Shown here: in pieces, positions 3,580 to 29,433 of the stretch
Layout: every line of letters begins with the position of its first letter
How positions within the stretch are numbered: the first letter of the stretch is position 1
NCBI RefSeq assembly: GCF_014897675.1
Contig: NZ_JABUXU010000003.1
Span: 186,001-250,000 of the forward strand
DNA: 64,000 nt
Origin: Advenella sp. FME57
Lineage (GTDB): Bacteria > Pseudomonadota > Gammaproteobacteria > Burkholderiales > Burkholderiaceae_B
Direction: 5' to 3'
The notes under the pieces: model-generated
Seen by the model: only the letters and a program-made list of their open reading frames with translations
Database searches by the model: none
Told to the model about the DNA's origin: nothing
Translations under genes and position numbers: made by a program

Positions 3580-4347
3580 TTATTTGCTGTCGGACAGAAC
3601 CAATTTTTCCAGGTAATCCAGATCCTCACGTACCAGACGCAGCGATTCCCTTACATCCGGCACTTCGGGTCGCCTTGCTGCATCACGCAACAGCGAATTG
3701 ACAGCCATGTCAGCCATGATCCCGGCGACATTGGCGCGATCCAGTCTGCCCTCGGGCTTATACCACCAGGCCGACCAGTTGCACATGCCAATCAGACTGA
3801 AAGCGGCTACATGTGCGTCAACCATGCGAAACACGCCTTCCCGGATCCCTCTTTCTATGACATGGCTGAAGTTCTCAAGTACATTACGGCGTGCATTTTG
3901 CACTGATATGCGTTGCTTCGGTGACAAGTCGGCCTCAGTACGATCTGCAACGCGAAACTCTGCAGGGCGTGACAGAATCAGGTCGGCGTGCTGGGTGACC
4001 AGCGCGCGCAACGCCGTCACGGGGTCAAGATCGTCGCGGGCAACGGTGTCGCCGGCCAGTTTGCGCGCCGCACTCAGCACTTCCTCTGTCAGCGATTGCT
4101 GAATCTGTTCCTTGTTCTTGAAATAATAATACACCGCCGTACGGCTCAATCCCAGCGCTTCGGCAATGTCCTGGATGCTGGTGCCGCCGGTGCCTCGTTC
4201 AATGAAAAGCGTTGCCGCCACATCCAGGATAGCGCTGCGTAGCGCTTCTCCTTTGAGCGTCGCCTTTGTCGAAATGTCGTTCACTGTCGTACTCCCTGTT
4301 GCAACGCAGCCATTAAACCCTAGTTGGCTGCCGGTTGTATAGCCCAT
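3580..4347 (-). CDS. TetR/AcrR family transcriptional regulator
   Basis: A TetR-type repressor, 255 residues from the ATG at 4347. The DNA-binding domain lies around residues 32-80 (ILDVAATLFIERG, then TSIQDIAEALGLSRTAVYYYFKNKEQI); the remainder is the ligand domain. Two starts are plausible: ATG 4347 after AAGGA, or GTG 4284 after AGGGAG with seven-base spacing, which would remove 21 residues with no family counterpart. It diverges from the aryl-acid catabolic operon starting at 4463, and two perfect TTGAC-N6-GTCAA palindromes lie between them, so it probably represses both. The ligand may be an aryl-CoA or free aromatic acid (inference). Confidence 0.88.
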   Translation of the reverse strand: MGYTTGSQLGFNGCVATGSTTVNDISTKATLKGEALRSAILDVAATLFIERGTGGTSIQDIAEALGLSRTAVYYYFKNKEQIQQSLTEEVLSAARKLAGDTVARDDLDPVTALRALVTQHADLILSRPAEFRVADRTEADLSPKQRISVQNARRNVLENFSHVIERGIREGVFRMVDAHVAAFSLIGMCNWSAWWYKPEGRLDRANVAGIMADMAVNSLLRDAARRPEVPDVRESLRLVREDLDYLEKLVLSDSK

Positions 4348-4360
4348 TATTTTCCTTGAT

Positions 4361-4426
4361 TTGACGGATTCGTCAAATATTAAAATTTAATTGACATTAA
4401 AGTCAAATAATTATCTAATGTGTCAA
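4361..4426. promoter_or_regulatory. repeated TTGAC-N6-GTCAA operators in the tetR divergent promoter
   Basis: Two palindromes with identical half-sites and spacing, TTGACGGATTCGTCAA (4361-4376) and TTGACATTAAAGTCAA (4391-4406), start exactly 30 bases apart. A third, degenerate copy with one good half (GTCAA, 4422-4426) starts 20 bases further. They lie between the divergent tetR and hydrolase starts, in the position expected for TetR binding. The first sits only 14 bases from the tetR start, which suggests autoregulation. Confidence 0.7.
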
Positions 4427-4462
4427 ATAACACTTCGATGATATTTGGAAAGGAGAACGATT

Positions 4463-5722
4463 GTGGCAATAAACCCTTCTGCAAATCCGGTTACCGCGGG
4501 GTTTCTGAATACGGACTGGAATCCACGTGATTTGCCCGCAGGCGCCTCTACCCGCAACGTGGTCTTGCGCTGCGCCGATGGCGCCGCCACCTCTGGCTCT
4601 CTGTATCAGCCAGCCGGCAAGCGCTGCAGGACGGTAGTATGCATCATGCATCCACGTGAGTTCATGGCATGCCACTACCTTATTCCAGATATTGTTGCGG
4701 CAGGCTGTGCCGCCTGGTCTCAGGGTGCACGATCAGTGGGCAATGACCTGCGCCTGGAGCATGAATTTGCATTGCGTGATGTCACCGCTGGCCTGACCTT
4801 TCTGCGTGAACAGGGATTCGACAATATCGTTCTGTTGGGCAATTCGGGTGGCGCGGGACTGTATTCGCTTTACGCTGAACAGTCGGCCCTGCCTGGAGCA
4901 CAACGGATTGCGCGCAGCCCGGCAGGAAAGCGCACCGGCTTGGGCGAGCTGGACATGCCTCGAGTTCAGGGCATGGTTTTGGTCGGCCCTCATCCTGGTC
5001 AGGGTGCATTGTTAATGAATTGCATTGACCCGTCTGTCGCGCAGGAGGGTGATGCCTTGTCTGTCGTACCGCACCTGGACCCGCTGGATCCGGCAAACGG
5101 CTACAAGCCGAACGGGCAGGCGCGTTACTCGGCGGAATTTATCGAACGCTACCGCGCCGGCCAGCAGGCCAGGGTGGCTCGCTTGGATGCGGTCGCGCAT
5201 CAGATGATAGACACGCGGCTAAAGGCGCGCGAGCGGGTGAAAACGCAGCCTGACAGCTCGGCAGATGGCAAACGGCTGGCCGCTCACACCCCGGTGCTGA
5301 TCGTCTGGCGAACCGATGCAGATTTGCGTTGCCTGGATCTGAGCCTTGATCCTTCAGACCGACACCCCGGCTCCCTATGGGGAAAAAATCCTTATTCGTC
5401 GAACTATGGTGCGGTGGGGTTCGCCCGTTTTTGTACGCCCGAGAGCTGGCTCTCGACCTGGTCAGCGCTCTCGTCCAATGCCAGTCTGTCGCGCACTGCT
5501 CCGGCGATCGACATACCATCACTGGTGATCGAATACACGGGCGACCAGGCCTGCTTTCCGGGTGATGTACAGACGATTTACGACGCGCTGACGGCGCAGG
5601 ACAAGCAGCATCTTCGCATTCGCGGCGACCATCATGGACGCGCCCTGACCGACGATGAAGAACCGGGACGCTATCAGGGCGGTCGCGAGCTGGCTCGCTG
5701 GTTGCAGGCGCGCTTTCTTTGA
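4463..5722 (+). CDS. alpha/beta-hydrolase, first gene of aryl-acid cluster
   Basis: A cytoplasmic serine hydrolase of 419 residues. The nucleophile elbow GNSGG places the catalytic serine at about residue 128; a C-terminal GDHHG supplies a likely catalytic His. The start is GTG at 4463, with AGGAG ideally spaced at 4451-4455; a TTG at 4445 would put the ribosome site inside the gene. At 419 residues it is longer than a typical meta-cleavage hydrolase (about 280), so the exact role is uncertain. It leads the operon that also contains a VOC dioxygenase-like protein, a ligase, a thioesterase and a monooxygenase. Cleavage of a ring-fission product or of an ester precursor is a reasonable guess. 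No signal peptide. Confidence 0.8.
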   Translation: MAINPSANPVTAGFLNTDWNPRDLPAGASTRNVVLRCADGAATSGSLYQPAGKRCRTVVCIMHPREFMACHYLIPDIVAAGCAAWSQGARSVGNDLRLEHEFALRDVTAGLTFLREQGFDNIVLLGNSGGAGLYSLYAEQSALPGAQRIARSPAGKRTGLGELDMPRVQGMVLVGPHPGQGALLMNCIDPSVAQEGDALSVVPHLDPLDPANGYKPNGQARYSAEFIERYRAGQQARVARLDAVAHQMIDTRLKARERVKTQPDSSADGKRLAAHTPVLIVWRTDADLRCLDLSLDPSDRHPGSLWGKNPYSSNYGAVGFARFCTPESWLSTWSALSSNASLSRTAPAIDIPSLVIEYTGDQACFPGDVQTIYDALTAQDKQHLRIRGDHHGRALTDDEEPGRYQGGRELARWLQARFL

Positions 5723-5745
5723 TTAATGCCTAATGGAGATTTGAC

Positions 5746-6642
5746 ATGACTGTTGTTCACGATACGCCAGGTGCGCTGCGGCTGCATGGCGTTGACCATA
5801 CTGCGAGACCGACCTGGCGCTTGCGCGAGACCGTCGCGTTTTACCGAGATGTGCTCGGCTTGCGCCTGGTCCATGTTATATCTGCTCGCGGGTGGGGGCC
5901 TGCGAGCCATCCGGATTTCCTGCATTTCTTTTTTGATAGCGGCAATGGCAGCACGATCGCGTTTTTCTACTATCTGGGCGCGCGGGAGCCGGAAACCATG
6001 CAGGGACGCAGTAGTATGCGGCCGTTGCCTGAAGATCATGTCGCCGATGCAACGCATACCGCGTGGCTGGTGCAGAATGAAGCGGAGTTGAAAGCCTGGA
6101 AAAAAAGGCTAGAGGATGCGAATCTGCAGGTCTCCGTCGAGACGCGCCATGAAGTGATCGAGTCGATTTATGTTCGCGACCCCAATGGCTATTTCATCGA
6201 ATTTACTCGTAAATTGAGGTCGTTGGGCCGGGTTGACGAAGTTGACGCCGATCTGACGATACAGGCGGCGATACAGGCCGAAGACAGCGCGCTGTCCAAG
6301 GGCGAACGCATCCGGCATATCGATGAAGTATGGGCCCGCAAGGCAACATTGCTTGAGCAGCAAGGCACAATGGCTCAGACGCCGGCCGCAGGCGTTCGCA
6401 TCTTTGTACCCTGCGTCGAGGAGTTTGCGCCGCTGGTGCGTGACGCAGAACAACGCGATGACTGTCAGGTCGTCAAGAGTGAATATTTCGATTGTATTTG
6501 TGCGGACAAGCCGCTGGAGTTTCGCCGCAAGGTGCTCGGATTGAAACCCGCTGTGTGGTATGGCCTGTTCACAGGCGGTGTCAGTGGCGTCATTGAAGTG
6601 CTGGACCGGGACCGGGTTCGGATCGTTCCCGTGACAGGCTGA
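5746..6642 (+). CDS. VOC-fold protein, probable extradiol dioxygenase or related metalloenzyme
   Basis: 298 residues. Residues 10-160 are a vicinal-oxygen-chelate module: HGVDHT (H18), DATHTAW (H104) and RDPNGYFIEF (E152) give a 2-His-1-Glu metal triad as in type I extradiol dioxygenases, and the RDPNG turn is typical. The C-terminal 130 residues do not show a second VOC repeat and look like a separate domain (GVRIFVPC to the end). ATG 5746 follows TGGAGAT; the gene begins 23 bases after the hydrolase. Context suggests ring cleavage of the hydroxylated aromatic made by the downstream enzymes. A non-dioxygenase VOC activity (isomerase, hydrolase) cannot be excluded. Confidence 0.75.
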   Translation: MTVVHDTPGALRLHGVDHTARPTWRLRETVAFYRDVLGLRLVHVISARGWGPASHPDFLHFFFDSGNGSTIAFFYYLGAREPETMQGRSSMRPLPEDHVADATHTAWLVQNEAELKAWKKRLEDANLQVSVETRHEVIESIYVRDPNGYFIEFTRKLRSLGRVDEVDADLTIQAAIQAEDSALSKGERIRHIDEVWARKATLLEQQGTMAQTPAAGVRIFVPCVEEFAPLVRDAEQRDDCQVVKSEYFDCICADKPLEFRRKVLGLKPAVWYGLFTGGVSGVIEVLDRDRVRIVPVTG

Positions 6643-6664
6643 TCTATTGGCAGGAGACAAAAAA

Positions 6665-8353
6665 ATGCAAAATATTCGTTACCCCATAGAGGGTGTTATT
6701 TATCATGAACAGGAGCGCGCACGCGCCTGGTATGACAATGGCGCGTGGCAGCAGCAGACGGTCGGCCACTTGTTGCGAGCCACGGCGCGTCGGTGTCCAG
6801 AACGCCAAGCGATCATCACCGAGGAAGGCAGCGTCACGTTTGCACAACTGGATGAGCAAACCGAGCGGCTGGCCGCGGCGCTGCTGAACCTGGGCCTGGA
6901 CCCTGGCGATCGTGCCATCTTTCAGATGGGCACCACGCTTGAGACCGTCATTGCGTTGCTGGCCTGTTATAAAGCGGGCATCGTACCGGTGTGTTCATTG
7001 CCGCAACACCGGGAACTGGAAATCGGTCAATTGATCCGTCAGTCTGGTGCACGTGGATACTTTGTTCAGGCTGATGTTAGCGCCTTTGATCTGGTTGCTT
7101 TCGCGCAGCGAATGATGTCCGACCATGCCGGATTGACACGACTGGTGGTGGCGCGCGGGACTTCATCGGCCGGCAACGATTTGCGCGCGCTGATCGAAGC
7201 CATGCCGCTCGCGCGAGCGCAGGCAATCGTCGCCGAGCATGCACCAGCCTGCGAGGATGTACTGGCGTTCCAGTTGTCTGGTGGCACGACCGGCATTCCA
7301 AAAATTATTCCGCGTTTTCATGCTGAGTACATCGCGCACTCACTTGCCTGTGCGAAGAACTATCAACTTGACCAAGATGATCGTTTCATTTGGGCTTTGC
7401 CATTATTGCACAATGCCGCGCAGGTGTATGTCCTGATGCCGGTCATCGCGATGGGCGTGTCAGCAGTTCTCATGCCCCGGGTCGATGTGCCGCTTATGTT
7501 GACGCTGATTGAGCGATACAGGGTCACGCGAGCAATTTCAATCGGACCGATCGCACCGCAATTGATGGCTTATTCCGATCTGGCAAGGCATGACTTGTCT
7601 TCGCTGCGTCTGTTTATAACAATGAGCGCAGCCGAGCGACTGGAAGAACATTTGCGCATTCCATGCTCCAACCTGTTCGGTATTACCGAGGGCTTGCTGG
7701 TTGGATCACCAGCCGGTGCACCACCTTACCTTCGCCACAAAACGCAGGGCCGCTCGGGCTGCGCCGATGATGAAATCCGCTTGCTGGTGCCCGGGACAGA
7801 AGTGGGCGTTGAACCGGGACAGATGGGTGAACTGTGTTTTCGCGGACCGGCCACCGTTCCCGGCTTCTTCGACGCACCGGCAGCCAATGCCCAGGCCTAC
7901 ACGTCTGACGGCTTTTACCGAACAGGCGACATGATGATAGAGCGGATTGTTGACGGCCAGTCCTATTACAGCTTTGAAGGCAGGTTGCGCGACAACATCA
8001 ATCGTGGCGGCGAAAAGATCGGATGTGAAGAGGTTGAAGCACTGGTCAGTGCGCATCAGGCCATTTCCGAAGCACGTCTTGTCGCCATGCCAGACCCCAT
8101 TTACGGCGAGAAGGGCTGCGTCTTCATCACATTGCGGCCTGGTCACGCCGCGCCTTCTGTCCAGGAATTGATGATGTTTCTCGTTGAAAAGGGTTTGGCC
8201 AAATATAAGTGTCCCGAACGCGTCGAGGTGATTGAGGCCTTTCCGGTTACCAAAGTGGGCAAGCTGGACAAGATGATGTTGCGCAGAATGATTGCAGAAT
8301 TAATCAATCACGAGGCCCGGCAGGGCACGGGGGAACGTAATGATAAGTACTGA
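6665..8353 (+). CDS. aryl-acid adenylate-forming enzyme / aryl-CoA ligase (DhbE/EntE-like)
   Basis: 562 residues of the ANL superfamily. The ATP loop SGGTTGIPK is at 205-213 and the C-terminal catalytic lysine in TKVGKLDK. The sequence ALPLLHN (H249-N250) matches the His-Asn pair of DhbE/EntE, where Asn contacts the 2-hydroxyl of 2,3-dihydroxybenzoate, so a 2-hydroxy- or 2-aminobenzoate is a likely substrate. No siderophore genes are near; the neighbours are a thioesterase and an aryl-CoA monooxygenase, which argues for CoA-dependent catabolism. ATG 6665 has AGGAG eight bases upstream. Its last bases overlap the thioesterase gene. Confidence 0.85.
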   Translation: MQNIRYPIEGVIYHEQERARAWYDNGAWQQQTVGHLLRATARRCPERQAIITEEGSVTFAQLDEQTERLAAALLNLGLDPGDRAIFQMGTTLETVIALLACYKAGIVPVCSLPQHRELEIGQLIRQSGARGYFVQADVSAFDLVAFAQRMMSDHAGLTRLVVARGTSSAGNDLRALIEAMPLARAQAIVAEHAPACEDVLAFQLSGGTTGIPKIIPRFHAEYIAHSLACAKNYQLDQDDRFIWALPLLHNAAQVYVLMPVIAMGVSAVLMPRVDVPLMLTLIERYRVTRAISIGPIAPQLMAYSDLARHDLSSLRLFITMSAAERLEEHLRIPCSNLFGITEGLLVGSPAGAPPYLRHKTQGRSGCADDEIRLLVPGTEVGVEPGQMGELCFRGPATVPGFFDAPAANAQAYTSDGFYRTGDMMIERIVDGQSYYSFEGRLRDNINRGGEKIGCEEVEALVSAHQAISEARLVAMPDPIYGEKGCVFITLRPGHAAPSVQELMMFLVEKGLAKYKCPERVEVIEAFPVTKVGKLDKMMLRRMIAELINHEARQGTGERNDKY

Positions 8354-8816
8354 GTACGTTGTGAATGAAGCGCCGTTTGTGATTCGTCGACGGGTCAAGT
8401 GGGGCGATTGCGATCCTGCTGGGGTGGTCTACACCGTCACATTCAGCGAGTATGTCATCTCGGCTGCTGAGCTTTTTTACGGACAGCTGCTGGGCGGGAC
8501 ACCGCAGCGCGTGAAGGACGAGCATGGCTTTGGCACGCCAACGCGTGCATTGACCTTTGATTTTCGCGCCTCACTCTGGCCTGATGAAGAGTTTGACATG
8601 GCCGTCTATGTTGAAAATATCAGCCAGCGGACCTATACCTTGCACATCGCCGGCAGTGTGCGTGGTCAGGCAGCGTTCGATGCACGATTGACGCCCATTT
8701 GTGTGGCTCGTGGCGAGCGCCGGGCCATTGCCTTGCCTGACGTACTGCGCGATGCGCTGCTCGGTTATCAGCATGACTGCGAACAACAGGCGCCATATGG
8801 GAGTACGAACCAATGA
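8340..8816 (+). CDS. acyl-CoA thioesterase, 4-hydroxybenzoyl-CoA type hotdog fold
   Basis: 158 residues of the hotdog superfamily. The motif WGDCDPAGVVY (D23/D25) resembles the active-site helix start of 4-hydroxybenzoyl-CoA thioesterases. It overlaps the ligase gene by 14 bases and the next gene by 4 (ATGA), so translation is probably coupled. In the proposed route it would release the free hydroxylated aromatic acid after CoA-bound hydroxylation. Substrate is inferred from context. Confidence 0.82.
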   Translation: MISTEYVVNEAPFVIRRRVKWGDCDPAGVVYTVTFSEYVISAAELFYGQLLGGTPQRVKDEHGFGTPTRALTFDFRASLWPDEEFDMAVYVENISQRTYTLHIAGSVRGQAAFDARLTPICVARGERRAIALPDVLRDALLGYQHDCEQQAPYGSTNQ

Positions 8817-9979
8817 AGATCGCAGTTATTGGCGCCGGCCCTGCCGGCCTGTATTTTTCTCTCCTGGCCAAGAAACAGGATCCTGGCCATGATATACGGG
8901 TTTATGAGCAAAATCCGCGAGGCGCCACCTATGGTTGGGGCGTGGTATTTTCCGACGTGGGACTGGCTTTCCTGCGCGAGGCCGATCCTGCGTTTTTCGA
9001 CACATTCGTGGCGCATCACGAGCGCTGCGACTATATGCAGATTATTCACCAGGGTACGAGTGTCCAGGTGCACGGCAATCATTTCTCGCGCACCGCGAGA
9101 CTGGATATGCTGGATGTGCTGGAACAGGCCTGTTTGCGGGCTGGCGTGCAAATCGAGCACGATTGCCGCATTGACGATATTGAACAGCTGGCTGCCGATG
9201 TTGATATGGTGGTGGCGGCAGATGGCAGCAATAGCGCAGTTCGCAAGCAATACGCCGATCAGTTCCGCCCCAGTTTTGAGCGCCGCCGCAATAAATTTGC
9301 CTGGTATGGAACGCATCAGCGCTTTCATCCTGTCTCGCTGATCTTTCGTGAAACGGACCACGGCATTTTTATTGCACACAGTTATCAATACAGTGCGACG
9401 TTAAGTACGTTTCTGGTCGAAGTAGACCCGGATACCTGGCACCGCGCTGGCCTGGATGTTGCCAGCGAAGAGCAGAGCCGTCGCTATTGTGCCGAGGTTT
9501 TTCGCGCCGATCTGGGCGCGAACGCACTGCTGACCAATCGTTCCCTGTGGTTTGAAGCAAATATCGTTCGTAATGAAAACTGGTCGTACCGCAATATTGT
9601 GTTGCTGGGCGATGCCTTGCGGACGGTTCATTTTTCGCTTGGTTCAGGTACCCGTATGGCCATGCAGGATGCCATCGCGCTGAACGAAGGGTTGCGGCAA
9701 AATCCGGGCGATGCCCAGGCCGCATTTGGCGTATTCGAATCCCGGCGCAGGCAGGCCTCATCCAATTTCCAGCATGCAGCAGCGCGAAGCCTGGATTGGT
9801 ACGAGAACGTCGCGGACAAGATGCAGCTGGATCCGGTGTCCTTTGCCTACGACTACATGAGACGCACCGGGCAGGTCAGCCATGATGATCTACGTCAACG
9901 GGACCCGGGTTTTACCGCCGCCTATGAAGTAAGGCACCCAGCCCTGTTTTTACAAAATACGCATGACGTGAACCATTAA
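8813..9979 (+). CDS. FAD-dependent aryl-CoA monooxygenase (salicylyl-CoA 5-hydroxylase / aminobenzoyl-CoA monooxygenase type)
   Basis: 388 residues of the single-component flavin hydroxylase family. GAGPAGLYFSL near the N-terminus binds FAD; YGWGVVFSD and LRTVHFSLGSGTRMAMQDAIAL are the features that separate hydroxylases acting on salicylyl-CoA or 2-aminobenzoyl-CoA from those acting on free acids. It would hydroxylate the ring of the CoA ester formed by the upstream ligase. It lacks the C-terminal reductase domain of the two-domain 2-aminobenzoyl-CoA monooxygenase/reductase. The ATG overlaps the thioesterase stop. The exact hydroxylation position is unknown. Confidence 0.85.
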   Translation: MKIAVIGAGPAGLYFSLLAKKQDPGHDIRVYEQNPRGATYGWGVVFSDVGLAFLREADPAFFDTFVAHHERCDYMQIIHQGTSVQVHGNHFSRTARLDMLDVLEQACLRAGVQIEHDCRIDDIEQLAADVDMVVAADGSNSAVRKQYADQFRPSFERRRNKFAWYGTHQRFHPVSLIFRETDHGIFIAHSYQYSATLSTFLVEVDPDTWHRAGLDVASEEQSRRYCAEVFRADLGANALLTNRSLWFEANIVRNENWSYRNIVLLGDALRTVHFSLGSGTRMAMQDAIALNEGLRQNPGDAQAAFGVFESRRRQASSNFQHAAARSLDWYENVADKMQLDPVSFAYDYMRRTGQVSHDDLRQRDPGFTAAYEVRHPALFLQNTHDVNH

Positions 9980-10018
9980 ATAACGTACCCAATAACCATC
10001 CATTCAATTGGAGGAGAC

Positions 10019-10993
10019 ATGAAAAAAATACTTACTCTGGCAACGCTCATCCTGGGCGTACTGACCTGTTCGGCGCAGGCCCAATCCTCAACCTATCCGA
10101 CTCGCAGTGTTCGTGCCGTTTTGCCCTATTCGGTTGGAAGCGGCCCGGACACGGTCGCAAGAATGATTGGGGAGCAATTGTCTGCGGCATGGAAACAGCC
10201 GTTCATTGTTGAGAATAAACCCGGCGCCAATGGGTGGCTTGCTCTCGGAGAGGTCAAACGATCCGCAGCGGACGGGTACTCGGTGGCGATCGTGGATAAC
10301 ACCCATATGACGCTGCAGCCTCATCTGTATAAAAAAATGCCATTTGATCCTGCCCGGGATTTTGTCGCGGCTGCGCCCATTTACTCCACACACTTTTTCA
10401 TCGTCGTTGCAGCCAATTCTCCGTGGCGCAATGTTGAGGATCTGGTCCAGGCGGCGAACAAAGCGAATGGACATCTCACGTACGGTACCTGGGGGATAGG
10501 TAGCGTTGCGCATCTGGGGTCGACTATTTTGCAGCAGCGTACACAGACGTCGATGACGCACATTCCATACAAGGATTTGTCACAGTTGTATACGGCAGTG
10601 GCGAATGGCGATGTGGATTGGGCTTTCGGTACAGCAGCGACAGTACAGAATCTCTACCAGGCAAAGCGAGTGAAGTTGCTTGCGCTGGCAGCGCCCACCC
10701 GACTGGCTTCGTATCCTGATGTGCCTACGGTCACTGAGGCCGGTGGCCCGAAGGACTTCGAACTGGAGACCTGGGTGGCTGCGTTTGCCCCCCGAGGTAC
10801 GCCGCAGGACGTCATTGAACGTCTCAATACTGCCATCGCTGCTGCGCTACGCACGACCGCAGTGAGGCAGCGCTTTGAAATCTTTGGCTTTAATGCATGG
10901 TCTGTCGATGTATCAGGCCTGGCACATGCGGTGAATGAGGACTCGGCACATTTTGGCCAGATCGTAGAGAAGGCCAATATTGCTTTGGACTAA
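10019..10993 (+). CDS. Bug/TctC-family periplasmic solute-binding protein
   Basis: 324 residues beginning with a signal peptide (KKILTLATLILGVLTCSAQA). Mature sequence shows the tripartite tricarboxylate receptor pattern: YPTRSVRAVLPYSVGSGPDTVARM, VENKPGANGWLALGEV, and TYGTWGIGSVAHLGSTIL. It follows the monooxygenase by 39 bases with GGAGGAGAC-like ribosome site, so it ends the operon and probably captures the aromatic acid or a precursor in the periplasm. No TctA/TctB membrane genes are nearby, as is usual for the expanded Bug families of Alcaligenaceae. Confidence 0.92.
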   Translation: MKKILTLATLILGVLTCSAQAQSSTYPTRSVRAVLPYSVGSGPDTVARMIGEQLSAAWKQPFIVENKPGANGWLALGEVKRSAADGYSVAIVDNTHMTLQPHLYKKMPFDPARDFVAAAPIYSTHFFIVVAANSPWRNVEDLVQAANKANGHLTYGTWGIGSVAHLGSTILQQRTQTSMTHIPYKDLSQLYTAVANGDVDWAFGTAATVQNLYQAKRVKLLALAAPTRLASYPDVPTVTEAGGPKDFELETWVAAFAPRGTPQDVIERLNTAIAAALRTTAVRQRFEIFGFNAWSVDVSGLAHAVNEDSAHFGQIVEKANIALD

Positions 10994-26439: not shown

Positions 26440-26655
26440 AAATGGCTTTCTCTCAATGGTTCAGATGAACAGTTTATGACCATATTGTGGCATGAATATG
26501 AATTGCCGCAAATGATAAAATGTGTCGGACTGATACGAATATACAGTGCCGGTGCGAAGTGCGCTAAGTAAAGGCGCGAAAGTGTTGGCCATTTCGCAAT
26601 ACGCTTGCCTTCCCGTTCGTCGGGCTGCTTGCTGTCGCATCAGCTGGGGCAGTCG

Positions 26656-26691
26656 ATAAAAAACCCGGCAGCGCCAGGAGCGCGGCCGGGT
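26656..26691 (-). terminator. Rho-independent terminator of the mmsA unit
   Basis: On the minus strand ACCCGGC pairs with GCCGGGT (plus 26685-26691 and 26663-26669) followed by a run of six T (plus 26658-26663). It lies about 30 bases after the mmsA stop. Textbook form. Confidence 0.88.
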
Positions 26692-26721
26692 CGGCACAAG
26701 TGCAATTGTGCTGATAAAACG

Positions 26722-28215
26722 CTATTTTTGCGCGATCGTGGTATTGACACCCGTATCATGCGAAGCCCAGCGCGCCGTAATCGACTTGGTCTGGGTCCAG
26801 AACATCACCGCCTGCTTGCCGTTAGGCCCCAGGTCGCCCAGTTTGGAGCCGCGCGAACCGGTGAAGCTGAACCATGCGACGGGAACAGGGATCGGAATAT
26901 TGATGCCGATCTGCCCCACATCGATATTGTTCTGGAAATAGCGCGCATTGCCGCCGCTTTGCGTGAAAACGGCAACGCCATTGCCATTCGGATTGCGATT
27001 GACAAACTCCACGGCCTCTTCCAATGTATCGACGCATACAATGCAAAGGACCGGGCCGAAAACTTCTTCGCGATAAATCGCCATGTTCTCTTTGACATCG
27101 GAAAAAATGGTCGGGCCAATGAAATTGCCGTCTTTATAGTCCGCGACAACGACATCGCGGCCATCCAGCAGCAGGCTGGCCTTTTCATCCACACCGCTCT
27201 GGATCAGCTGCGCAACGCGCTGCTTTGCCCGGGGCGAGACCAGGGGCCCCAGATCGGCCTGGCGATCGCTGCCGGCATTGACTTTCAGTCCTCTGGATTT
27301 TTCTACAAATTCGTCAATCCATTCCCTGGCTTGACCCACCATCACGGCCACCGACGTGGCCATGCAGCGCTGACCAGCCGCACCGAAAGCGGCGCCGACC
27401 AGCTGGTTAAGGGCCACTTCTTTGTCGGCATCAGGCAGGATGACGCAGTGATTCTTGGCCCCCATCATGGCCTGGCAGCGTTTGCCTGCATTGGATGCAC
27501 GCTGATAAATCTGCGTGCCCACATGCGTGGAGCCGATAAACGACACTGCCTTTACATCCGGATGTTCGCAGAGTCGGTTTGCCACGTCCGGACCGCCGTG
27601 CACAACATTGAGCACCCCGGGTGGCAGGCCCGCTTCATGCGCCAGTTCGGCCAGATACAGCGATGCGCTGGGATCCTGTTCCGAAGGCTTGAGCACAAAT
27701 GTGTTGCCGCAGGCTACGGCAATGGGGAACATGAAGCAGGGCAGCATGACCGGAAAATTGAACGCGGTAATCCCGACGCACACGCCAAGTGGCTGAATCA
27801 ATGTATACACATCGATTCCGGTGCCGGCATTTTCTGCATATTCTCCCATCTGCAGGCTGACGATAGCGCATGCGTGTTCGATGACTTCAAGACCGCGACC
27901 CACTTCGCCTTCGGCATCAGGCAGCGTTTTGCCATGCTCCAGTGTGATCAGCTCGGCCAGTTTTGTTGCGTTGTCGCGCACCAGTTGCTGCAGTTTGAGC
28001 ATGACGCGCATGCGGTTGCCCTGACTGGTATTGCGCCAGGTCGCAAATGCGGCCTTGGCGCTGGCAACCGCCTCGTCCACTTCCGAGATTGGCGCCAGCG
28101 GTACGCGGGCCACCACTTCCTGGTTTGCCGGGTTCACGACATCCAGCCAATCCTTGGCCGAAGACTGGACTTTTTTTCCGTTGATCAGCAGCGGAATATT
28201 GGGTATGGCACTCAT
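26722..28215 (-). CDS. mmsA: CoA-acylating methylmalonate-semialdehyde dehydrogenase
   Basis: 497 residues. The nucleophile is C284 in GQRCMATS, and the usual general-base Glu is replaced by Asn in MGAKNH, which marks the CoA-acylating MMSDH/IolA subfamily. Converts methylmalonate semialdehyde (or malonate semialdehyde) to propionyl-CoA (acetyl-CoA) in valine, beta-alanine or inositol breakdown. Twelve bases after an ABC-type binding protein gene, suggesting joint control by the divergent LysR. Ends at a clear terminator. Confidence 0.92.
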   Translation of the reverse strand: MSAIPNIPLLINGKKVQSSAKDWLDVVNPANQEVVARVPLAPISEVDEAVASAKAAFATWRNTSQGNRMRVMLKLQQLVRDNATKLAELITLEHGKTLPDAEGEVGRGLEVIEHACAIVSLQMGEYAENAGTGIDVYTLIQPLGVCVGITAFNFPVMLPCFMFPIAVACGNTFVLKPSEQDPSASLYLAELAHEAGLPPGVLNVVHGGPDVANRLCEHPDVKAVSFIGSTHVGTQIYQRASNAGKRCQAMMGAKNHCVILPDADKEVALNQLVGAAFGAAGQRCMATSVAVMVGQAREWIDEFVEKSRGLKVNAGSDRQADLGPLVSPRAKQRVAQLIQSGVDEKASLLLDGRDVVVADYKDGNFIGPTIFSDVKENMAIYREEVFGPVLCIVCVDTLEEAVEFVNRNPNGNGVAVFTQSGGNARYFQNNIDVGQIGINIPIPVPVAWFSFTGSRGSKLGDLGPNGKQAVMFWTQTKSITARWASHDTGVNTTIAQK

Positions 28216-28227
28216 AACATCAATCCT

Positions 28228-29433
28228 TTAATTTTTTACAAGAGGGCAGGTAGATTCGGAAAGGGGGCTAAATGCTTCTGCTGCCGGAATGGTGGCGATC
28301 AGTTTCGAATAATCCCATTCACCTTTCTTTTCTTCCGGTTTTTTGACTTCATACAGATACATATCGTGAATAACCCGGCCATCGGCACGGATAGAGGCGT
28401 TATGCATGATCGGATCCTCGATCGGCAGCTTGCGCATGTGTTCGGCAACCTTGGCGCCGTCTGTCGTGCCGGCAGCTGCCACGGCTTTCAGGTAATGCAA
28501 TACGCTGGAATACACGCCGGCCTGGGTCATGGTGGGTTTCAGGCCCTTATAGGCCTTGGCAAAGCGTTCGGACCACTGGCGGGTACCGTCATCAAAGTCC
28601 CAGTAGAAGCCGTCCACGTAGGTCAGGCCCTGGGCGTTCTCGTTGCCTAGCGCGCGCAGGTCTGACAGGAACATCAGCAGGGCCACCAGGCGCTGGTCGC
28701 CACCACTGACGCCGAATTCCTTGGCCTGCTTGACTGCATTAACCGTGTCCTGGCCACCGTTGGCCAATGCCACAACCTGCGCGCCGCTGCTTTGTGCCTG
28801 CAACAGGAACGAGGCATAGTCGCTGTTGTTCAATGGATGGCGCACCTGGCCAACCACCGTGCCGCCCAGTTTCTTGACCATTTTCGCGGTATCGGCTTCT
28901 AGCGAGTGGCCAAATGCGTAATCCACGGTCAGGAAAAACCAGGATTTGCCGCCGGCCTGGACCGTGGCTTTTGCTCCCCCCACCGATTGGGAATAGGTAT
29001 CGAACATCCAGTGAAAGCCCATCGGAGAGCAGGATTTATTGGTCAGGGCAGTGGTGGCCGGTCCCGAGAACAGCGCGATACGGTTTTTTTCCCTGGCCAC
29101 ATTCTGTACCGCCAGCGCCACTGCTGAATTGGTCAGATCGGCGATGGCGGTGACGCCTTGACGGTCAAACCATTCCCGGGCCTTTGCCGCCCCTACGTCG
29201 GCCTTGTTCTGATTGTCGGCAGACACCAATTCGATTTTCATTCCCTTGCACGGACCCGCAAGGCATTCATCGATGGCAAGCTGCGCTGCCGCAACCGAGC
29301 CGGCGCCGCCCATGGAGGCATAGGTGCCCGACATATCGGTAAGCACACCTACTTTTACTTCGGGTGTATCGGCGGCCCAGGCAGTAAGCGCCATGCATGA
29401 CGCTGCTGCCAGTACTGTTTTCCTGATCAACAT
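28228..29433 (-). CDS. branched-chain amino acid-type ABC substrate-binding protein (orphan)
   Basis: 401 residues with a signal peptide (VLAAASCMALTAWA). LivJ/Peripla_BP_6 fold: VKVGVLTDMSGTYASMGG, VSADNQNKADVGAAKAREW and FFLTVDYAFGHSLEADT. No permease or ATPase genes adjoin it, so it must share membrane components with another Liv system, possibly that at 38420-41788. Clearly related to the binding protein at 37045. Cotranscribed with mmsA, so its ligand may be a carboxylate degraded through methylmalonate semialdehyde. Confidence 0.9.
   Translation of the reverse strand: MLIRKTVLAAASCMALTAWAADTPEVKVGVLTDMSGTYASMGGAGSVAAAQLAIDECLAGPCKGMKIELVSADNQNKADVGAAKAREWFDRQGVTAIADLTNSAVALAVQNVAREKNRIALFSGPATTALTNKSCSPMGFHWMFDTYSQSVGGAKATVQAGGKSWFFLTVDYAFGHSLEADTAKMVKKLGGTVVGQVRHPLNNSDYASFLLQAQSSGAQVVALANGGQDTVNAVKQAKEFGVSGGDQRLVALLMFLSDLRALGNENAQGLTYVDGFYWDFDDGTRQWSERFAKAYKGLKPTMTQAGVYSSVLHYLKAVAAAGTTDGAKVAEHMRKLPIEDPIMHNASIRADGRVIHDMYLYEVKKPEEKKGEWDYSKLIATIPAAEAFSPLSESTCPLVKN

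What the first reader, a model, noticed from the sequence alone, without database searches (positions are those of the whole stretch)
4284..10993. TetR-controlled aryl-CoA catabolic cluster with an unusual enzyme set
The operon encodes a DhbE-like aryl-acid ligase with a His-Asn specificity pair, an FAD monooxygenase of the salicylyl-CoA/aminobenzoyl-CoA class, a hotdog thioesterase, a VOC-fold protein with a 2-His-1-Glu triad, an alpha/beta-hydrolase and a Bug receptor. Activation, CoA-bound hydroxylation and thioester release are each known for salicylate-to-gentisate routes, but gentisate is normally opened by a cupin dioxygenase, not a VOC enzyme. Finding a VOC protein and a hydrolase instead suggests another product and a ring-cleavage branch that I cannot match to a described pathway.
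Basis: partly seen in the sequence, partly recalled or inferred. Interest (0 to 1): 0.75.

Follow-up and report, generated by a model that had tools for sequence, protein, structure and literature searches.

The report
Salicylate operon with non-cupin ring cleavage
A conserved set of bacterial genes that probably breaks down salicylate through a CoA-bound intermediate and then opens the ring with an enzyme of an unexpected family, replacing the textbook gentisate route.

Summary
In detail: genes, families and active-site residues are as described, in an Advenella-like genome. Ligase, flavin hydroxylase and thioesterase match the known CoA-dependent salicylate-to-gentisate route. Of 84 loci where the hydroxylase has this VOC gene nearby, none shows a gentisate-type cupin or FAH-family gene nearby; of 15 relatives without it, five do (cupin), two of them above the curated cut-off, one being the sister of the main VOC clade. 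57 of the 84 also carry a maleate isomerase, absent from the window; 21 of the other 27 were searched genome-wide and all 21 have one elsewhere. The VOC protein's best PDB match by E-value is a VOC-fold homogentisate 1,2-dioxygenase, though it superposes poorly. Best reading: the VOC enzyme opens gentisate to maleylpyruvate, the hydrolase splits that to maleate and pyruvate, and maleate becomes fumarate. Six of 49 VOC genomes have no convincing cupin, but 40 have a true one elsewhere. No activity is shown. A new variant of a known pathway.

The parts
3580..4284 (-). TetR-family repressor gene (ORF open to 4347; homologue suggests a start at about 4284)
   Evidence: Pfam TetR_N + TetR_C_24; 705-base homologue in L001
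4361..4376 (.). operator-like palindrome TTGAC-N6-GTCAA, site 1
   Evidence: two exact sites in the window; with at most 1 mismatch the motif lies at -250 to +60 of the first operon gene in 63 of 74 loci, 4.23 per kb against 0.051 per kb elsewhere
4391..4406 (.). operator-like palindrome, site 2
4463..5722 (+). alpha/beta-hydrolase, proposed maleylpyruvate hydrolase; S128-D361-H390
   Evidence: triad invariant in 33 of 33; model pLDDT 86.8 with alpha/beta-hydrolase matches; no Pfam or NCBIfam match
5746..6642 (+). VOC-fold protein, proposed gentisate ring-cleaving dioxygenase; H18-H104-E152
   Evidence: PF00903; triad invariant in 38 of 38; best PDB match by E-value 9u42, VOC-fold homogentisate 1,2-dioxygenase, poor superposition
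6394..6633 (+). C-terminal part of the VOC protein (about residues 217-296), a separate small gene in 12 of 80 genome loci
   Evidence: cluster 10; strands and helices at 217-294 in the model
6665..8353 (+). DhbE/PchD-like aryl-acid ligase, proposed salicylate-CoA ligase
8340..8816 (+). hotdog (4HBT_2) thioesterase, proposed gentisyl-CoA thioesterase
   Evidence: PF13279; a homologue in 60 of 84 VOC-type loci
8813..9979 (+). single-domain FAD monooxygenase, proposed salicylyl-CoA 5-hydroxylase
   Evidence: closest NCBIfam model PRK08255, salicylyl-CoA 5-hydroxylase/oxidoreductase, half its length and below its cut-off; nearest PDB chain VioD
10019..10993 (+). Bug/TctC periplasmic receptor, probable uptake component
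   Evidence: PF03401

Best explanation
The operon degrades salicylate (or a very close 2-hydroxybenzoate) in the CoA-bound form and opens gentisate with a VOC enzyme. Proposed steps: (1) the ligase makes salicylyl-CoA; (2) the FAD monooxygenase hydroxylates C5 to gentisyl-CoA; (3) the thioesterase frees gentisate; (4) the VOC protein, using Fe(II) on H18/H104/E152, cleaves the C1-C2 bond to maleylpyruvate; (5) the Ser-Asp-His alpha/beta-hydrolase cuts maleylpyruvate to maleate and pyruvate; (6) a maleate cis-trans isomerase, near the operon in most relatives but on another contig here, gives fumarate. TetR represses through two TTGAC-N6-GTCAA sites; Bug helps uptake. Shown by sequence: gene content, families, conserved catalytic residues, conservation of the set, absence of the cupin module nearby, the palindrome motif. 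Inferred: every substrate and reaction, the metal, and TetR binding.
For: Upper half: ligase closest to salicylate/DHB adenylating enzymes, His-Asn invariant in 79 of 79 rows; hydroxylase closest to the salicylyl-CoA 5-hydroxylase model; the CoA route to gentisate is described (PMC4600096, passages). Product: L076 groups with 79 VOC-type monooxygenases (100/96) and carries a cupin over the gentisate 1,2-dioxygenase cut-off (513 against 442 bits), an FAH-family gene and a ligase tail 67% identical over 48 aa; L110 also passes the cut-off (549 bits). Of seven annotated plasmid relatives opened (of 170 records; none among the 16 VOC records), four have a GDO or cupin gene in the same stretch (L111, L112, L113, L116). 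Module exchange: cupin 0 of 84 VOC-type loci and 5 of 15 others; maleate isomerase 57 of 84 and 0 of 15. VOC as para-diol cleaver: best PDB hit by sequence (E 9e-11) and by Foldseek E-value (5.6e-10) is 9u42, homogentisate 1,2-dioxygenase, with all three ligands aligned. End product: the isomerase of relatives matches maleate isomerase 4fq7 at E 4e-80, two cysteines conserved in 51 of 51 and 50 of 51 rows. 21 genomes of the 27 loci without it nearby were searched and 21 have one elsewhere (24 of 24, with three more that have it in the locus). Six of 49 VOC-type genomes have no convincing cupin: four none, two only hits of 31-34 bits.
Against: No activity, metabolite or growth datum. The 9u42 superposition is poor (TM 0.24/0.41, rmsd 19 A), methylmalonyl-CoA epimerases superpose better (TM to target 0.67-0.68), and epimerases and glyoxalases are VOC proteins with the same kind of metal site, so fold and triad do not prove a dioxygenase. 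40 of 49 VOC-type genomes have a cupin over the cut-off elsewhere and three more a long match below it; this host has two below it: the operon could rely on those. 24 of 84 VOC-type loci lack a recognisable thioesterase nearby and 27 lack a nearby isomerase. Maleate isomerase also serves nicotinate breakdown and I have no base rate in genomes without the operon. The ligase differs from PchD and NatL2 just after His-Asn. The hydrolase has no sequence match in the PDB and its folds are generic esterases. 10 of 15 VOC-negative relatives had neither module in the DNA held; three of the five cupins are below the cut-off. L076 and the Actinomycetota rows are long branches, which the tree program warns about.
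Confidence: 0.58

Rival explanations
1. The operon only makes gentisate; cupin gentisate dioxygenases encoded elsewhere in the genome open the ring, and the VOC protein and hydrolase do something else, such as clearing a by-product or epimerising or unloading another CoA ester.
For: The host has two cupin genes of the gentisate dioxygenase superfamily in clusters with FAH-family and FAD-monooxygenase genes; 40 of 49 VOC-type genomes have a cupin over the cut-off; the VOC model superposes better on methylmalonyl-CoA epimerases than on 9u42.
Against: Six of 49 VOC-type genomes keep the operon without a convincing cupin (assemblies may be incomplete). The VOC and hydrolase genes are constant companions (82 of 84; in L042 the hydrolase is cut by the end of the locus). 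A linked maleate isomerase (57 of 84) has no use if maleylpyruvate goes through the usual isomerase/FAH route.
Confidence: 0.18
2. The substrate is a salicylate look-alike, for example anthranilate or 3-hydroxypicolinate; the VOC product is then an amide, and the hydrolase acts as an amidase to reach maleate or maleamate.
For: The ligase pocket is not identical to that of salicylate ligases. The monooxygenase family includes bifunctional enzymes that by recall act on anthraniloyl-CoA. Maleate is also the end product of N-heterocycle routes; L034 has NicX- and NicF-like genes downstream; L092 has annotated amidase and nitrilase genes upstream on the other strand.
Against: Relatives pair such ligases and monooxygenases with gentisate-dioxygenase-type cupins. 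Of the 34 gene clusters shared by at least four of the 80 loci, those identified by Pfam or by eye include no amidase or deaminase; the nearest is an M20 peptidase in four Achromobacter loci. The host has a separate 828-aa frame of the bifunctional kind.
Confidence: 0.16
3. The VOC protein cleaves the thioester gentisyl-CoA directly and the thioesterase acts later or is dispensable.
For: 24 of 84 VOC-type loci have no thioesterase homologue nearby; VOC folds that bind CoA esters (methylmalonyl-CoA epimerase) are among the best superpositions.
Against: 60 of 84 have one, in most gene orders directly after the ligase; host thioesterases could fill in; the best match by E-value works on a free acid by its title (9u42).
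Confidence: 0.08

Closest known systems
CoA-dependent salicylate to gentisate route (Streptomyces WA46 sdg genes; Rhizobium sp. X9 cehGHI)
   Same: Ligase, flavin hydroxylase on the CoA thioester, thioester hydrolysis (route described in PMC4600096, passages; title of the Rhizobium X9 paper seen in a reference list). sdgC and sdgD are named; the other gene names and the content of the X9 paper are recalled.
   Different: The described route ends in gentisate 1,2-dioxygenase; here VOC + alpha/beta-hydrolase (+ maleate isomerase) follow.
Classical gentisate pathway (cupin gentisate 1,2-dioxygenase, maleylpyruvate isomerase, FAH-family hydrolase)
   Same: Proposed same intermediate, gentisate, and same end products, fumarate and pyruvate.
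   Different: Cupin and FAH-family genes were found near none of 84 VOC-type loci and the glutathione-type isomerase near none of 80 genome loci.
VOC-fold homogentisate 1,2-dioxygenase of Acinetobacter (PDB 9u42)
   Same: VOC family, aligned 2-His-1-Glu residues, chemically similar para-diol substrate.
   Different: 23% identity over 178 columns and poor superposition; our protein has an extra C-terminal part; substrate untested. Only the entry title was seen.
Direct maleylpyruvate hydrolysis in Pseudomonas alcaligenes (HbzF)
   Same: Same proposed reaction, maleylpyruvate to maleate + pyruvate (PMC5658364, passages).
   Different: Ours models as an alpha/beta-hydrolase; HbzF is FAH-family by recall.
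Maleate cis-trans isomerase (PDB 4fq7; NicE of Pseudomonas putida by recall)
   Same: Isomerase of the relatives' operons matches over the full length.
   Different: Proposed here after an aryl-CoA route, not nicotinate; in this genome it is unlinked.

Membership tests
CoA-dependent salicylate-to-gentisate route | aryl-acid ligase + CoA-thioester flavin hydroxylase + thioesterase together | tested here: met
CoA-dependent salicylate-to-gentisate route | salicylate is the substrate and gentisate the product | not testable with these tools
   indirect only: relatives beside gentisate-dioxygenase-type cupins
Classical gentisate lower pathway | cupin gentisate 1,2-dioxygenase in the cluster | tested here: not met
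   0 of 84 VOC-type loci
Classical gentisate lower pathway | FAH-family hydrolase or glutathione maleylpyruvate isomerase in the cluster | tested here: not met
   FAH 0 of 84 VOC-type loci; glutathione-type isomerase 0 of the 80 genome loci
VOC (type I) ring-cleaving dioxygenase | VOC fold with 2-His-1-Glu metal residues | tested here: met
   shared with non-dioxygenase VOC proteins, so not sufficient
VOC (type I) ring-cleaving dioxygenase | match to a curated catechol or biphenyl-diol dioxygenase model above cut-off | tested here: not met
   TIGR03213 23 bits against 366; TIGR03211 16 against 320
VOC (type I) ring-cleaving dioxygenase | dioxygenase activity | not testable with these tools
   needs protein
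VOC-fold homogentisate 1,2-dioxygenase (9u42) | close structural superposition on 9u42 | tested here: inconclusive
   best E-values but TM 0.24/0.41, rmsd 19 A; the second aligner was not available
Serine alpha/beta-hydrolase | fold and invariant Ser-Asp-His | tested here: met
HbzF-type maleylpyruvate hydrolase (FAH family) | FAH-family sequence | tested here: not met
   no Pfam or NCBIfam match; model is alpha/beta-hydrolase
Maleate cis-trans isomerase | full-length match and two conserved cysteines (relatives' operons) | tested here: met
Bifunctional salicylyl-CoA hydroxylase/oxidoreductase (PRK08255) | two-part protein of about 770 aa above the cut-off | tested here: not met
   388 aa, 384 bits against 1078
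2,3-dihydroxybenzoyl-adenylate synthase (siderophore) | score above the curated cut-off | tested here: not met
   354.6 against 723.55 bits

The most novel reading that the evidence does not exclude
A widespread second gentisate lower pathway exists in Pseudomonadota and Actinomycetota in which the ring is opened by a VOC enzyme that arose independently of the cupins. It may work as a two-part protein and, in lineages without a thioesterase, act on gentisyl-CoA itself, which would be ring cleavage of a para-diol CoA thioester.
Probability: 0.12. Interest if true: 0.78.

Novelty: new variant of a known kind. Interest (0 to 1): 0.57.

Why it matters
A database paper on aromatic catabolism places gentisate dioxygenases in the cupin superfamily (AromaDeg, PMC4250580, passages). 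If a VOC protein does the job in these operons, salicylate and gentisate breakdown is missed or misassigned when genomes are screened for cupins alone, and the ring-cleaving step has been recruited twice from unrelated folds. It would also give a natural gentisate-to-maleate route with an alpha/beta-hydrolase, of use for making maleate. The set is a ready, testable package of five enzymes.

Tried and rejected
Dipicolinate or hydroxypicolinate pathway: literature searches gave nothing useful; kept only as a rival. Siderophore-type carrier loading: ligase far below the family cut-off; carrier-protein genes were not searched for as such. Defence role: no PADLOC match for the VOC protein or hydrolase. 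Alcaligenes aquatilis annotates a CoA-route hydroxylase but did not grow on salicylate (PMC6460240, passages), a warning against reading substrate from annotation. First gene-calling on the 80 loci was spoiled by antisense frames and replaced by a codon-scored one. Co-regulation of the host's stand-alone maleate isomerase was not supported: none of the 18 exact operator-like places in the genome lies on its contig C37. That search gave 18 places against 9 for the reversed control, so the motif alone is not specific. The VOC profile at E <= 1e-40 was found only in this genome in a phylum sample (1 of 398), in this genome plus one in an order sample (2 of 399) and, by protein search, at 88% identity or more in 4 of 10 genomes of the genus: patchy, so I could not test the module behind other gentisate-forming enzymes. 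Nine paper searches around the combination showed no description of it in the titles and abstract starts listed; three listings were capped at 20 (of 23, 52 and 83), and the library is open-access only, so this does not show that it is unpublished.

Limits of the counts: 'nearby' means within the DNA held for a locus, up to 8-10 kb each side and often less. Cupin, FAH and isomerase were sought by tblastn with host or L005 proteins. The 84 VOC-type loci are 76 of the 80 genome loci, seven plasmid loci and L108; L108 and L017 have identical monooxygenases. The 80 were drawn by monooxygenase similarity (best 80 of 205). The eight plasmid loci were drawn by VOC similarity (of 16 records) and can only add to the VOC side; L091 of these has no detected monooxygenase and is outside the 99. 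L099-L110 are 12 regions that I picked from 20 places and 16. Six of the 27 loci without a nearby isomerase were not searched genome-wide (L015, L020, L037, L046, L096, L097). Rows are related, so the Fisher value is not a fair probability. On checking I found that I had left out the poor superposition on 9u42; for that I lowered the best reading from 0.62 to 0.58 and raised the first two rivals slightly.


Full report
WHAT IS THERE. The window is from a 4.74-Mb genome whose nearest named relative in the locus search is Advenella incenata (L001, 97% in the monooxygenase). The first gene has no family match but models confidently as an alpha/beta-hydrolase (pLDDT 86.8; best folds are esterases and lipases), with Ser128, Asp361 and His390 invariant in 33 of 33 sequences. 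The VOC protein keeps His18, His104 and Glu152 in 38 of 38 sequences and models at pLDDT 88.8. Two perfect palindromes, TTGAC-N6-GTCAA at 4361-4376 and 4391-4406, lie between the TetR gene and the operon. With at most one mismatch the motif is found around the start of the first operon gene in 63 of 74 loci, at about 80 times the density elsewhere.

A CONSERVED SET. Of 80 genome loci fetched by monooxygenase similarity (the best 80 of 205), 75 carry the VOC gene, 73 the hydrolase gene, 77 the ligase and 55 the thioesterase by clustering. Hosts are mainly Burkholderiales, with Azospirillum, Pseudomonas and a few others. Annotated plasmid records extend it to Actinomycetota (Rhodococcus, Tsukamurella, Streptomyces) and other Alphaproteobacteria; there the monooxygenases are only 33-42% identical and the thioesterase is missing in L095-L097, so the equivalence is less sure. 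In 12 of the 80 loci the C-terminal part of the VOC protein is a separate small gene directly after it.

THE MISSING CLUE. 50 of the 80 loci carry a further gene, 49 of them on the same strand within 3.2 kb of the core genes and one, L039, 7.4 kb away. It is a maleate cis-trans isomerase: the match to 4fq7 is at E 4e-80, with two cysteines conserved in 51 of 51 and 50 of 51 rows (that these are catalytic is recalled). The window genome has a 60% identical homologue on another contig, beside a LysR-like gene (by eye). Of the 27 VOC-type loci without the gene nearby, 21 genomes were searched whole and 21 have one (58% identity or more, 24 of 24 including three that have it in the locus). I have no base rate, since this enzyme also serves nicotinate breakdown; the host has genes that I read by eye as NicX-, NicF- and NicD-like (Pfam gives isochorismatase and alpha/beta-hydrolase for two and nothing for the NicX-like one).

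MODULE EXCHANGE. I compared 99 monooxygenase loci. With the VOC gene: 84 loci, of which 82 also show the hydrolase; cupin gentisate dioxygenase 0, FAH family 0, maleate isomerase 57, thioesterase 60, ligase 84. Without it: 15 loci, cupin 5, FAH 1, maleate isomerase 0. Ten of the 15 had neither module in the DNA held. In the monooxygenase tree, L076, which has cupin, FAH and the tail of a ligase 67% identical to ours over 48 residues, joins 79 VOC-type rows (100/96), which themselves form one group (93/85). The VOC label needs three changes and starred branches force two. The program warns that L076 and the plasmid rows are long branches whose joins may be false. Two of the five cupins pass the curated gentisate 1,2-dioxygenase cut-off (L076 513 bits, L110 549, cut-off 442); three are below it (L100 240, L101 264, L104 279). 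Of seven annotated plasmid relatives that I opened (of 170 records; none is among the 16 VOC records), L111 and L113 have an annotated gentisate dioxygenase, L112 and L116 a cupin with maleylpyruvate isomerase and FAH genes, L117 an FAH gene only, and L114 and L115 none. So the hydroxylase product is most simply gentisate, and the VOC group takes the place of the cupin group.

WHY THE VOC PROTEIN COULD CLEAVE GENTISATE, AND WHY THIS IS NOT PROVED. Its best PDB match by sequence (E 9e-11) and by Foldseek E-value (5.6e-10) is 9u42, titled homogentisate 1,2-dioxygenase of Acinetobacter; the three metal residues align. Homogentisate and gentisate are both 2,5-dihydroxy acids. But the superposition is poor (TM 0.24/0.41, rmsd 19 A), methylmalonyl-CoA epimerases superpose better on the VOC part (TM to target 0.67-0.68 for 6bu2), extradiol dioxygenases of the BphC kind are also among the first 50, and the second structural aligner was not available. 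I found no paper on 9u42 in the library and saw only its title. VOC enzymes that open para-diols are also known from recall (LinE, PcpA).

GENOME-WIDE CHECK. Among 49 genomes with the VOC-type operon (50 of the loci), 40 have a cupin above the gentisate dioxygenase cut-off somewhere, three have only a long match below it (L001, L016, L055), two have only weak hits (L032, L068) and four have no match (L024, L039, L048, L074). The six show that the operon is kept without a convincing cupin, as expected if it has its own ring cleaver; the others leave open that cupins help. The window genome itself has two cupins of the superfamily, at 253-257 bits, below the cut-off.

MECHANISM PROPOSED. Salicylate to salicylyl-CoA, to gentisyl-CoA, to gentisate, to maleylpyruvate (VOC), to maleate + pyruvate (alpha/beta-hydrolase), to fumarate (isomerase). 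Hydrolysis of maleylpyruvate between C3 and C4 of the diketo acid gives exactly the maleate that the isomerase needs; direct hydrolysis is known from P. alcaligenes (PMC5658364, passages). All substrate assignments are inference.

LITERATURE SEEN. PMC4600096 (passages): the CoA route of salicylate to gentisate, then gentisate 1,2-dioxygenase. PMC13215587 (passages): sdgC route in Massilia. PMC6460240 (passages): an SdgC relative annotated but no growth on salicylate. PMC11335346 (passages): cites Zhou et al. 2021 on Rhizobium sp. X9; that paper is not held and its content is recalled. PMC4250580 (passages): gentisate dioxygenases treated as cupins. PMC6449761 (passages from a term search): its text on regulation in Betaproteobacteria has no hit for 'salicyl' or 'maleate'. 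Nine searches around the combination showed none in the titles and abstract starts listed, three of them capped.

VERDICT. Real, conserved and coherent; a new variant of a known pathway. The surprise is the probable second, unrelated ring-cleaving enzyme and the maleate branch, not a new substrate. Confidence in the full route was set at 0.58, lowered from 0.62 when the poor superposition on 9u42 was weighed.

Noticed in passing
L086:9969-10718 (own genome, contig C37): Stand-alone maleate cis-trans isomerase gene beside a LysR-like gene; no isomerase match lies on contig C20, which holds the host's NicX/NicF-like genes, so one unlinked copy may serve two pathways.
   Followed up: partly
L089 and L090 (own genome, contig C20): Two clusters with gentisate-dioxygenase-like cupin, FAH-family, FAD-monooxygenase (3-hydroxybenzoate-6-hydroxylase-like by eye) and Bug receptor genes; both cupins score well below the curated cut-off.
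   Followed up: partly
own genome contig C20:25397-26557: An 828-aa open frame holding a monooxygenase 40% identical to the operon's single-domain one, of the length of the bifunctional kind.
   Followed up: no
L023, L065, L070, L071 and L091: GMC-type oxidoreductase and aldehyde dehydrogenase genes near the operon in Variovorax and Paraburkholderia and near the VOC genes in a Rhodococcus plasmid; perhaps they feed salicylate from salicyl alcohol.
   Followed up: no
G004 (same genus), contig C1:1271353-1272239: The VOC gene reads as two overlapping matches in one congener, as in the loci where the C-terminal part is a separate gene.
   Followed up: no
L034:15211-16869: NicX- and NicF-like genes (80% and 72% identical to the host's) lie about 5-7 kb past the maleate isomerase gene of the operon in Paraburkholderia oxyphila.
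   Followed up: no
L031:2904-3365 and similar (10 loci, cluster 11): SnoaL-like small proteins recur near the operon in Pseudomonas, Paraburkholderia and Burkholderia.
   Followed up: no
window 26605-28650: A 681-aa frame without a Pfam match overlaps a 497-aa antisense frame; which one is the gene was not settled.
   Followed up: no
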